A DNA stretch of 38,844 bases from positions 1 to 38,844 of the forward strand of contig CANPDB010000014.1 of the NCBI GenBank assembly GCA_947572725.1, written 5' to 3'. The position numbers and the translations under genes are program-made. This document shows positions 3,338 to 5,819 of the stretch, piece after piece (within the stretch, counting starts at the first letter, position 1; each line of letters begins with the position of its first letter). This DNA is from an uncultured Clostridium sp. GTDB taxonomy: Bacteria > Bacillota > Clostridia > TANB77 > CAG-508. The notes beneath the pieces are model-generated. The model searched no databases. It saw only the letters and a list, made by a program, of their open reading frames with translations, and was not told the origin of the DNA.

Positions 3338-3940
3338 CTAACTTATTTCTATTTTATTACTAATTTTCTTATTTGATAAAATTTGTTCCTTATATTGTTC
3401 ATCAATATATGTAATTTCACTATACTTTAAATCTTGAATTTTTTTACGCATAATACAAATTACTTTTCCAGTATTATAAGTTAATTTTCTGATATCTTCT
3501 TTTAAAGAAGTATTACATATATAATATTTTCCCTTTACAATAAAACCTAAACATGATGTTACATTTCCTATAATTTTATTTGAAATCAAAAAAATTTTAT
3601 CTTGATTATAATCTCCTACTATTTTAGCATTTTTATGAATAAACATTAAATTGTTTAAAACCGATAATTTATTTCTGGTATTTCCATCTTTTCTTTCCTG
3701 TATTTCACATTCTTTTATCTTATTCATAATACATTTATTATAAAAAATCTTTGCACTAATTTCTTTATCCTTTAAGTCAATTCCTGTTAAATGTAAAAAA
3801 TTCGATTTTAAAAATTTGGTTTCTAAATATTCAATTTTTCTGTTTTGTAAATATATAAACATTATATTTCTATTATTTAAATTCTTATCATAATTCTTTG
3901 CACATTTTATAATTTCTCTTATAATTATTTTTTTGTCTAT
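3338..3940 (-). CDS. Putative RNase toxin of a type III-like TA locus (PBECR4-like nuclease domain)
   Basis: About 200 residues. The segment KSNFLHLTGIDLK, followed by AKIFYNKCI, a run of basic residues, FLISNKIIGN and SCLGFIVKGKYYICNT, resembles PBECR4, a member of the Barnase/EndoU/ColicinE5-D/RelE-like nuclease group. This is from memory, not a search. The frame is open further upstream to 4033, but that extension would read through a terminator and part of a repeat array. The only good ribosome site is AAAGGAGA at 3947-3954. At normal spacing (7 nt after GGAG) lies ATA (3938-3940), with ATT as an alternative four codons on. There is no in-frame ATG, GTG or TTG until codon 58 of the long frame, so initiation is probably at a non-standard codon. 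Upstream are a strong promoter, two 54-bp tandem repeats and a terminator, the arrangement of ToxIN/CptIN-type systems. The product would cut RNA and be held inactive by the repeat RNA (inference). Confidence 0.6.
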   Translation of the reverse strand: MDKKIIIREIIKCAKNYDKNLNNRNIMFIYLQNRKIEYLETKFLKSNFLHLTGIDLKDKEISAKIFYNKCIMNKIKECEIQERKDGNTRNKLSVLNNLMFIHKNAKIVGDYNQDKIFLISNKIIGNVTSCLGFIVKGKYYICNTSLKEDIRKLTYNTGKVICIMRKKIQDLKYSEITYIDEQYKEQILSNKKISNKIEIS

Positions 3941-3964
3941 ATTATTTCTCCTTTCATTAATAAA

Positions 3965-4000
3965 TATAAAAAAAGAGAAAACAAAATCTAAATTTTGTTT
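3965..4000 (-). terminator. Terminator between repeat RNA and toxin gene
   Basis: On the minus strand AAACAAAAT, loop TTAG, ATTTTGTTT is followed by TCTCTTTTTTT, a stem and U-run. It lies after the repeats and 11 bp before the toxin's Shine-Dalgarno, exactly where type III TA loci carry a leaky terminator. Confidence 0.85.
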
Positions 4001-4014
4001 CCCCCATATACTGA

Positions 4015-4068
4015 TTTTTCCGTTGTCCGCCAACTTGTAAGTTCATAAATCTTACTTTATCTCTCAGG
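4015..4068 (-). repeat. Tandem 54-bp repeat, unit 2 (toxin-proximal)
   Basis: On the minus strand it begins CCTGAGAGATAAAGTAAG and ends ACAACGGAAAAA. It is directly adjacent to unit 1 with no spacer, and about 44 of 54 positions are identical by hand alignment. The hairpin arms GTAAG/CTTAC and GTTG/CAAC are kept, while differences concentrate in loops and linkers. Confidence 0.85.
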
Positions 4069-4122
4069 TTTTTCTGTTGCCTGCCAACTGGTAAGCCCAT
4101 AAGTCTTACTTTAACTCTCGGA
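4069..4122 (-). repeat. Tandem 54-bp repeat, unit 1 (promoter-proximal)
   Basis: On the minus strand it begins TCCGAGAGTTAAAGTAAG and ends GCAACAGAAAAA, in exact 54-bp phase with the next unit. Upstream, the leader also ends in ACTAAAAA, so the A-run recurs at each unit boundary. Confidence 0.85.
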
Positions 4123-4173
4123 TTTTTAGTGTCAGTACACCAAGATTTATTTCAATCTCTTTCTAGTATATTC

Positions 4174-4202
4174 ATTATAATATCATTTTATAATTTTGTC
4201 AA
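4174..4202 (-). promoter_or_regulatory. Consensus sigma-A promoter for the repeat RNA
   Basis: On the minus strand TTGACA (4197-4202), a 17-bp spacer and TATAAT (4174-4179) are a perfect match to both consensus boxes. This predicts strong constitutive transcription, as expected for an RNA antitoxin that must exceed its toxin. Confidence 0.85.
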
Positions 4203-5311: not shown

Positions 5312-5578
5312 TTATTTATAAATATCTCTTCTATGTCCAACTTCTAATATAAGTACTATTATTTCTTTATCTTGTATTTCACAAATAACTCTATAATTAC
5401 CTATACGATATCTCCATTGTCCTGACTTATTTTCTATTAATCCTTTACCATGTATTCTTGGATTTTCACAACCTTCTATATTCTTTTCTAGCCATCCAAT
5501 TATTAAAGATGATGTATGTTTATCTAACTTTTTTAGTTGTTTTTTGGCTCTTTCTGTGAATACAACTTTATATTTCAT
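5312..5578 (-). CDS. RelE/ParE-family toxin of a type II TA pair
   Basis: This 88-residue protein begins MKYKVVFTERAKKQLKKLDK, the first strand and helix of the RelE fold, and contains the SGQWRYRIGNYRVICEI core strands and the C-terminal LEVGHRRDIYK ending, where conserved His/Arg residues lie in this superfamily. RelE members cleave ribosome-bound mRNA; ParE members target gyrase. The GHRRDIYK ending fits the RelE mRNA-interferase branch. Its ATG overlaps the antitoxin stop (TAATG), so the two are translationally coupled. Confidence 0.88.
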   Translation of the reverse strand: MKYKVVFTERAKKQLKKLDKHTSSLIIGWLEKNIEGCENPRIHGKGLIENKSGQWRYRIGNYRVICEIQDKEIIVLILEVGHRRDIYK

Positions 5579-5796
5579 TATAAATCTAACTCCTCTTTTA
5601 CTTCATTTAATGTATATTTTTTTGGATTCTTTTTATATTCTTCTATTGCTTTTTTATAACACTCTAAATCATATTCATCTTCTATCTTTTCTAATACTGC
5701 ATTTCTTATCAAATCAGATAAAGAAATATTATTCATTTCTGCATATGCTTTTATTAACTCTGTATCTTCATCATTTAATCTTACTGAAATAGTCAT
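5578..5796 (-). CDS. Ribbon-helix-helix antitoxin (RelB-like, DUF6290 type)
   Basis: This protein is 72 residues from ATG 5796. The N-terminal MTISVRLNDEDTELIKAYAE and ISLSDLIRNAVLEKI are a ribbon-helix-helix DNA-binding unit. The C-terminal half, with YKKAIEEYKKNPKKYTLNEV, is the toxin-wrapping tail. I prefer ATG 5796 to TTG 5805 because GGGAG (5806-5810) is 9 nt from the ATG and abuts the TTG. The pair is expected to repress its own promoter, and a repeat inside that promoter (5820-5848) is a plausible operator. Confidence 0.85.
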   Translation of the reverse strand: MTISVRLNDEDTELIKAYAEMNNISLSDLIRNAVLEKIEDEYDLECYKKAIEEYKKNPKKYTLNEVKEELDL

Positions 5797-5819
5797 ATCT
5801 ATCAACTCCCTTCTAATAT

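What the first reader, a model, noticed from the sequence alone, without database searches (positions are those of the whole stretch)
3338..4202. Type III-like toxin-antitoxin locus with a PBECR4-like toxin and 54-bp RNA repeats
The minus strand shows, in order, a perfect TTGACA-17-TATAAT promoter, two contiguous 54-bp repeats that keep the hairpin arms GTAAG/CTTAC and GTTG/CAAC and end in A-runs, a stem plus U-run terminator, a strong Shine-Dalgarno and a gene of about 200 codons. This is the exact order of ToxIN/CptIN/TenpIN type III loci, where a repeat RNA neutralises an endoribonuclease. The gene product looks like PBECR4 (NFLHLTGI...SCLGF) rather than the ToxN, CptN or TenpN sequences I know. 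A PBECR4 nuclease controlled by an RNA antitoxin may be undescribed. The domain assignment is from memory.
Basis: partly seen in the sequence, partly recalled or inferred. Interest (0 to 1): 0.88.

Follow-up and report, generated by a model that had tools for sequence, protein, structure and literature searches.

The report
RNA-guarded PBECR4 nuclease toxin module
A gut-type bacterium carries a predicted RNA-cutting toxin whose gene is preceded by a small structured RNA that probably keeps it switched off, and the same pairing recurs in many other bacteria, plasmids and a phage, with a previously unexplained RNA family apparently playing that part in some of them.

Summary
On the minus strand lie a 12/12 consensus promoter, a leader hairpin, two 54-bp repeats, a terminator, a Shine-Dalgarno and a 200-codon PBECR4 gene (PF18813, 108 bits) that appears to start at AUA. 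Of 46 distinct PBECR4 loci examined with enough upstream DNA, 43 have a structured RNA directly upstream: 38 this repeat class, 5 the orphan Rfam RNA 'drum'. Searched the other way, 13 of 16 drum places precede a PBECR4-like gene. Covariation is strong and unusual: each small hairpin loop pairs with a tail elsewhere in the RNA, in mirrored order (loop0-tail2, loop1-tail1, loop2-tail0); 16 of 17 informative loci favour this. RNAs persist without the toxin gene at six loci. PBECR4 shows no detectable sequence relation to ToxN, although the same genome carries classical ToxIN. Best reading: a type III-like RNA-protein toxin-antitoxin system with a different toxin family and a new RNA architecture, drum being the antitoxin of its divergent branch. 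Toxicity, direct inhibition and processing are inferred. I found no description in the open library; the paper I recall as describing drum was not held.

The parts
4174..4202 (-). sigma-70 type promoter TTGACA-17-TATAAT
   Evidence: 12 of 12 consensus matches; consensus only
4142..4159 (-). leader hairpin P0 (GAGATT/AATCTT)
   Evidence: in the predicted fold; a stem of score 4 or more lies in the 40 bases before HL0 in 37 of 38 loci, not always the same stem
4128..4141 (-). small hairpin HL0 (GGTG-TACTGA-CACT); loop pairs with tail2
   Evidence: helices 1 and 2
4119..4127 (-). tail0 AAAAATCCG; TCCG pairs with the HL2 loop CGGA
   Evidence: helix 3, 99.0% of cells paired
4091..4109 (-). repeat 1 stem-loop (GTAAG/CTTAC)
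   Evidence: helix 4, 4 of 4 counted pairs with changes on both sides
4076..4088 (-). HL1 (GTTG-GCAGG-CAAC); loop CAGG pairs with tail1
   Evidence: helices 5 and 6
4065..4073 (-). tail1 AAAAACCTG
   Evidence: pairs with the HL1 loop
4037..4055 (-). repeat 2 stem-loop (GTAAG/CTTAC)
   Evidence: helix 7, 89.0% of cells paired
4022..4034 (-). HL2 (GTTG-GCGGA-CAAC); loop CGGA pairs with tail0
   Evidence: helices 3 and 8
4009..4019 (-). tail2 AAAAATCAGTA; TCAGTA pairs with the HL0 loop
   Evidence: helix 2
3974..4005 (-). intrinsic terminator between RNA and toxin gene
   Evidence: 14-pair stem followed by a T run
3948..3954 (-). Shine-Dalgarno AAAGGAG
   Evidence: read
3338..3940 (-). PBECR4 protein, 200 aa, apparent AUA start, predicted BECR-fold endoribonuclease toxin
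   Evidence: PF18813 108.2 bits; His50 and Thr144 invariant in 16 aligned sequences

Best explanation
This is an RNA-protein toxin-antitoxin module that works like type III systems. Shown from sequence: one promoter, a folded RNA of a leader plus two repeat modules, a terminator, then the PBECR4 gene. The RNA has covarying hairpins and loop-tail pairs in mirrored order, and RNA and gene are linked across many loci and hosts. Inferred: most transcripts stop at the terminator and give the RNA in excess. Read-through, together with a weak AUA/AUU start in this clade, gives little toxin. The folded RNA, or units cut from it at the A-runs that re-associate through the loop-tail pairs, binds PBECR4 and blocks its predicted His/Thr active site. 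When RNA supply fails (transcription shut-off by a phage, or loss of the element), the stable nuclease is freed and cuts cellular RNA. The Rfam drum RNA does the same job for a divergent branch of PBECR4.
For: Upstream RNA at 43 of 46 testable distinct PBECR4 loci. A covariance model built from 25 loci finds 12 of the 13 other repeat-class loci at E<=0.01 and the 13th at 0.036; in 25 ToxN loci its only match at E<=1 has E 0.99. In the genus all 10 PBECR4 places have the RNA. Pair counts: 97.0% of cells paired, 27 of 33 pairs with changes on both sides, 0 of 500 shuffles reach the covariation score, slid controls at most 0.100 against 0.395. Mirrored pairing preferred in 16 of 17 discriminating loci. 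Drum: 13 of 16 places precede a PBECR4-like ORF, and 10 of 10 scanned proteins pass the PBECR4 cut-off; 4 of 4 plasmid loci opened, of 21 records, have drum above its gathering score. RNA without an intact toxin: L091, L092, L093 and a second RNA in L043; drum in L066 and L073. Patchy distribution and an empty site.
Against: No expression, toxicity, binding or cleavage data. Three PBECR4 loci (L056, L057, L064) have no recognised RNA, and folding of two of their upstream regions is unremarkable (L056 z 0.11; L064 z -1.54). L050 prefers unmirrored pairing, and L003 and L006 favour mirrored by one base pair only. The minimum-energy fold of the window RNA shows P0, repeat-2 stem and HL2 but folds the HL0, repeat-1 and HL1 regions differently. 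No sequence relation to ToxN. PADLOC-DB gives one weak match for the window protein (E 0.0083, 14.2 bits) and none for five relatives. Many named loci are metagenome assemblies, and several toxin genes are broken or split.
Confidence: 0.77

Rival explanations
1. The RNA is a cis-acting leader (attenuator or ligand-sensing switch) that controls read-through into the PBECR4 gene and does not touch the protein.
For: It lies in the 5' region with a terminator before the gene, and structured leaders are common (general knowledge).
Against: The same RNA, by model R1, persists where the toxin gene is gone or a remnant, as does drum at L066 and L073. Duplicated modules and a fold closed on itself before a separate terminator are not typical of attenuators. 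I did not search systematically for an anti-terminator alternative.
Confidence: 0.12
2. The RNA is a needed partner or sensor of the nuclease (guide, activator or decoy of a phage product) and not primarily an inhibitor.
For: Tight association and a conserved elaborate fold. Other defence systems use RNA for function (retrons and DRTs, named in a passage of PMC12373285).
Against: RNA-without-toxin loci are easier to explain for an antitoxin than for a cofactor. The order promoter, RNA, terminator, toxin matches the described type III arrangement (passages of PMC5086642).
Confidence: 0.08
3. Ordinary member of ToxIN, CptIN or TenpIN.
For: Same gene order; repeat length and number (54 nt, 2.1 copies) are close to the 50 and 45 nt, 2.1 copies given for TenpI and CptI (passage of PMC12373285).
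Against: Profile comparison with 16 ToxN proteins gives probability 0.2. The PBECR4 profile finds no ToxN, AbiQ or CptN chain at E<=10, while the ToxN profile finds ToxN and AbiQ chains (it does not find CptN at E<=0.01 either). The RNA model does not hit ToxN loci. TenpN was not compared directly.
Confidence: 0.03

Closest known systems
ToxIN / CptIN / TenpIN type III toxin-antitoxin systems
   Same: Promoter, tandem-repeat RNA, terminator, toxin gene; pseudoknot-like RNA; predicted endoribonuclease; CptI units of 45 nt in about two copies (passages)
   Different: Toxin is PBECR4 with no detectable sequence relation to ToxN. RNA has a leader module and mirrored pairing between units, not self-contained unit pseudoknots. 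Some members use the non-repeat drum RNA.
Rfam drum RNA (RF02958), listed as sRNA, function unknown to me
   Same: Directly precedes divergent PBECR4 genes; loop pairs with a tail after an A-run just before the terminator
   Different: The window RNA does not match the drum model and has tandem repeats; model R1 does not hit the drum loci given to it.
PBECR domains of phage polyvalent proteins (Iyer et al. 2017, PMC5512222)
   Same: Predicted BECR-fold RNase, His plus Thr/Ser configuration in five of six families; solo versions in phages (passages)
   Different: No RNA partner is mentioned in the passages seen, and PBECR4 is not named in the main text; here the gene stands alone behind a structured RNA.
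AbiF-RCd22 of C. difficile (PMC12373285)
   Same: RNA with two repeated motifs upstream of a toxic Abi protein, direct RNA-protein neutralisation reported (passages)
   Different: Different protein (Abi_2 family) and different RNA motif.
AvcID
   Same: RNA antitoxin with a toxin that is not ToxN (abstract start in search listing)
   Different: Toxin is a deoxycytidylate deaminase.

Membership tests
Type III TA (works like) | Tandem-repeat RNA upstream, same strand, single promoter | tested here: met
   for the window; 38 repeat-class loci, one of them (L026) with a single unit; promoters of other loci seen by eye only
Type III TA (works like) | Intrinsic terminator between RNA and toxin gene | tested here: met
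   Window. Other loci seen by eye only
Type III TA (works like) | RNA folds as a pseudoknot | tested here: met
   Loop-tail helices with covariation; arrangement differs from ToxI and CptI
Type III TA (works like) | RNA neutralises the toxin by direct binding | not testable with these tools
   Needs experiment
Type III TA (works like) | Toxin is an endoribonuclease that cuts the RNA into units | not testable with these tools
   Nuclease activity predicted from the PBECR family only
ToxIN/CptIN/TenpIN families | Toxin homologous to ToxN (PF13958) | tested here: not met
   with positive control; TenpN was not compared directly; folds could not be compared
PBECR4 (PF18813) | Profile score above curated cut-off | tested here: met
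   108.2 bits against 27
PBECR4 (PF18813) | His in N-terminal helix and C-terminal Thr/Ser | tested here: inconclusive
   H50 and T144 are invariant in 16 sequences, and in 23 sequences H50 is invariant and T144 nearly so; that they are the catalytic pair named in PMC5512222 is inferred, and no structure was available
Rfam drum (RF02958), for the window RNA | Score at or above gathering score | tested here: not met
   No drum hit in the window
Rfam drum (RF02958), for RNAs of divergent PBECR4 loci | Score at or above gathering score | tested here: met
   L063 52.3, L065 43.0, L083 and L084 51.8, L086 50.0, L085 46.4 against 43; L064 and L056 gave no drum match

The most novel reading that the evidence does not exclude
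PBECR4 systems are a separate superfamily of RNA-guarded toxins. Their antitoxin is a set of hairpin-plus-tail modules that lock together by reciprocal loop-tail pairing in mirrored order, so that the whole RNA, or a heterodimer of its two units, closes on itself around two or three toxins, instead of falling into identical self-contained pseudoknots as ToxI does. The orphan drum RNA is the antitoxin of the divergent branch. In one clade the toxin is further throttled by conserved AUA/AUU start codons.
Probability: 0.55. Interest if true: 0.92.

Novelty: new variant of a known kind. Interest (0 to 1): 0.86.

Why it matters
If true, RNA-neutralised RNase toxins are not confined to the ToxN and CptN folds. 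An RNA class with no function known to me (drum) gets a directly testable role, and the predicted phage nuclease family PBECR4 gets a biological setting on chromosomes, Enterococcus and Streptococcus plasmids and a phage. The mirrored pairing is a specific testable RNA assembly rule.

Tried and rejected
Rejected: membership of ToxIN (profile comparison; ToxN loci free of this RNA). Rejected: the TTG at 4033 as the true start, because it lies inside repeat 2 upstream of the terminator. Rejected: unmirrored pairing as the general rule (its two loop-tail helices pair in 90.0 and 80.8% of cells, against 99.0 and 93.9% for the mirrored ones).

Led nowhere: single-protein scan of genome contigs (0 relatives among 70 candidates); window PBECR4 in plasmids (none); drum-type protein in phages (none); viral contigs (one locus); PADLOC-DB; PHROGs (none); NCBIfam (only a match far below its cut-off); window-only Rfam scan (nothing near a gathering score). 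Folding of L064 and L056 upstream DNA gave no clear support for an RNA there. Not followed: the Lactococcus lactis control genome with a PBECR4 match, the second PBECR4 place in the phage record, and 17 of the 21 plasmid records.

Weak points of my own tests. The hairpin/tail tables were chosen by eye after I had noticed the pairing, so their complementarity is biased upwards; the shuffles test which loop goes with which tail, not the choice of hairpins. Several drum HL0 pairings are only 3 bases long. The stem detector (73 of 77) picks alternative stems in several loci; the helix counts are the better test.

Full report
The observation. All claimed elements are present on the minus strand at 3338-4202. 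The promoter matches 12 of 12 consensus bases with a 17-base spacer, and one terminator-like site lies at 4005-3974 where shuffles give a mean of 0.0. The 54-bp tandem repeat scores 160, the highest of 73 rows in the 38.8-kb window, the next being 86. The 200-residue product matches Pfam PBECR4 at 108.2 bits (cut-off 27) with no other Pfam family at E<=1. The RNA region folds more stably than shuffles (z -2.77), but the minimum-energy fold, which cannot hold pseudoknots, shows P0, the repeat-2 stem and HL2 and folds the HL0, repeat-1 and HL1 regions differently.

The start codon. Between the Shine-Dalgarno AAAGGAG and the position of the methionine of homologues there is no ATG, GTG or TTG in frame; the codon there is ATA. 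By my reading, nine distinct loci have ATA (L001, which is the window, L002, L037, L007) or ATT (L013, L016, L019, L032, L033) there. In L013, L016, L019 and L037 a GTG lies three codons upstream, almost touching the Shine-Dalgarno, so the case is clearest for the window, L002 and L007. L032 and L033 have broken genes. Most other loci have ATG, TTG or GTG there. AUA/AUU initiation is inferred, not shown.

Homologues and their upstream DNA. PF18813 was found over its cut-off in 6 of 97 genus genomes, 22 of 292 of the family, 25 of 385 of the order and 4 of 398 of the phylum; the samples overlap and each includes the window's genome. I added loci from genome contigs (22), viral contigs (1), one phage record and 4 of 21 plasmid records. 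After removing near-duplicates (22 removed; L084 counted with L083) there are 47 distinct loci. L017 has only 115 bases before the contig end. Of the other 46, 38 carry the repeat-class RNA and 5 carry drum (L063, L065, L083, L085, L086). Three (L056, L057, L064) carry nothing recognised; folding of L056 and L064 upstream DNA gives z 0.11 and -1.54. Several of the toxin genes are truncated or split by stops or frame changes (for example L026, L028, L032, L033, L055), which may be decay or assembly error. The frame of the phage copy also looks shortened.

Independent test of the RNA. Model R1 was built from 25 loci. It finds 12 of the 13 repeat-class loci not used for building at E<=0.01, and L026 at 0.036. 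It does not hit the drum, L056 or L064 loci given to it in the same call, nor L017 and L057. In 25 ToxN loci the only match at E<=1 has E 0.99. In 97 genus genomes it gives 13 places in 9 genomes. Ten of these are the ten PBECR4 places; three (L091, L092, L093) have no intact PBECR4. L091 keeps what looks like a C-terminal remnant of the toxin, L092 is followed by a NUDIX-like gene, and L093 by genes that look like AbiEi/AbiEii (names from recall). L043 has a second RNA (56.3 bits) with no PBECR4 gene seen behind it in the ORF list.

RNA structure. The RNA is built of modules: a stem-loop, a small hairpin (HL) and an A-rich tail. The leader is module 0 and the two repeats are modules 1 and 2. 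In the window the HL0 loop UACUGA matches tail2 UCAGUA, the HL1 loop CAGG matches tail1 CCUG, and the HL2 loop CGGA matches tail0 UCCG. Across 38 loci, with hairpins picked by eye after I had noticed the pairing, HL0 shows at least 4 contiguous Watson-Crick pairs with its own last tail in 38 of 38 (at least 5 in 28), and 15 different HL0 loops occur; against last tails of loci with another HL0 loop at least 5 pairs occur in 88 of 1260 comparisons. Over 35 three-module loci the mirrored assignment has the highest total of all six (472, next 420). Of 17 loci where mirrored and unmirrored assignments differ, 16 favour mirrored, with 11 different loop combinations, and L050 favours unmirrored; L003 and L006 differ by one pair only and the middle module of L043 is uncertain. 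None of 2000 shuffles of loops among loci reaches the observed sum (284; shuffle maximum 228). Tool pair counts on 25 aligned loci agree: 97.0% of cells paired, 27 of 33 pairs changed on both sides, covariation 0.395 against at most 0.100 when slid; 0 of 500 shuffles reach four of the five measures and 3 of 500 the fifth. The unmirrored version scores lower (94.3%, 24 of 33, 0.360). The structure was derived from one of the rows and the loci are related, both of which inflate such tests, so I lean on the number of different loop sets.

Drum. Rfam drum was first hit directly upstream of two divergent PBECR4 genes. Searching drum itself gave matches in 3 of 249 phylum genomes, two over the cut-off, 6 of 101 and 7 of 100, 16 distinct places in all (L066-L068, L070-L082; L067 is the L063 locus). 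Thirteen are followed directly, after what looks like a terminator stem, by a PBECR4-like ORF. L066, L073 and L068 are not; L068 is below the gathering score and lies inside a long ORF. L075 is also below the gathering score but has the gene; L076 and L080 have genes split over two frames; the L065 drum, right at its gathering score, was missed by the stricter filters. Ten of the ORFs were scanned and all ten pass the PBECR4 cut-off (42.5-137.3 bits). All four plasmid loci that I opened, of 21 plasmid records (20 Enterococcus, 1 Streptococcus), carry drum above its gathering score upstream of genes annotated as PBECR4 domain proteins. Drum shows two loop-tail pairings of the same style, which no shuffle of 2000 reaches (elements by eye, 19 loci, several HL0 pairings only 3 bases long). 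A profile of drum-linked PBECR4 aligns with the repeat-linked one (probability 94.8).

Relation to ToxN. The window's own genome has three PF13958 (ToxN) matches, one of them only a fragment with a stop. The C7 copy is preceded by 37-bp repeats, so the two systems coexist. Profile comparison of PBECR4 with 16 ToxN proteins gives probability 0.2. The ToxN profile finds solved ToxN and AbiQ chains, and the PBECR4 profiles find no type III toxin. TenpN was not compared directly, and folds could not be compared because structure prediction was off.

Mobility and setting. In L002 and L037 the module lies between a thiamine-pyrophosphokinase-like gene (name from recall) and porB. In L135, L137 and L139 those two genes adjoin without it, and L131 and L136 hold a transposase-like ORF (name from recall) there. 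In the window a ParE/RHH pair lies nearby. The phage copy sits near a type III restriction gene and recombinases, and one plasmid copy beside AbiH. This is the company expected of defence or maintenance modules; the function is inferred.

Literature. PBECR4 occurs in 0 papers of the open library. 'PBECR' or the full domain name occurs in 6, of which two concern the domain: passages of PMC5512222 (predicted RNase) and PMC9403866 (PBECR3 only). Drum appears as a fold example in PMC7657543 and as a predicted K-turn in a table of PMC11974997 (passages; found). A survey of microbiome RNAs reports RNAs before ToxN (passages of PMC8040213). Searches on type III systems (the listings of 50 and 114 show 10 of 709 and 12 of 84 papers) listed nothing on PBECR4. 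The paper I recall as describing drum is not held and no bioRxiv library is held, so a prior note of the gene link cannot be excluded.

Verdict. A real, widespread RNA-toxin pairing that works like type III but is not, by sequence, a member of the ToxN families. Neutralisation and processing remain to be shown.

Noticed in passing
window 3940-3938 (-) and loci L002, L037, L007, L013, L016, L019, L032, L033: ATA or ATT stands at the homologous start codon position of the toxin gene; a conserved weak start would add a further brake on toxin synthesis.
   Followed up: partly
window 5312-5805 (-): Type II toxin-antitoxin pair: ParE toxin (PF05016) and a ribbon-helix-helix partner (DUF6290/RHH_1).
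   Followed up: partly
G000 C7:1673-2149 (L102): Classical ToxN gene with 37-bp tandem repeats in the same genome.
   Followed up: yes
L091, L092, L093 and L043 4763-4904 (-): Repeat-class RNAs without an intact PBECR4 gene; L091 seems to keep a toxin remnant, L093 is next to AbiE-like genes.
   Followed up: partly
L066 and L073: Drum RNAs above the gathering score with no PBECR4 gene directly downstream.
   Followed up: partly
L131, L136 against L135, L137, L139: The porB-side intergenic site that holds the module in the window and L002 carries a transposase-like ORF in some relatives and is empty of the module in others.
   Followed up: partly
L064 2090-2260 (-), L056 2735-2870 (+): PBECR4 loci whose upstream DNA has a promoter-like start by eye but no recognised RNA class; possibly further divergent RNAs.
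   Followed up: partly
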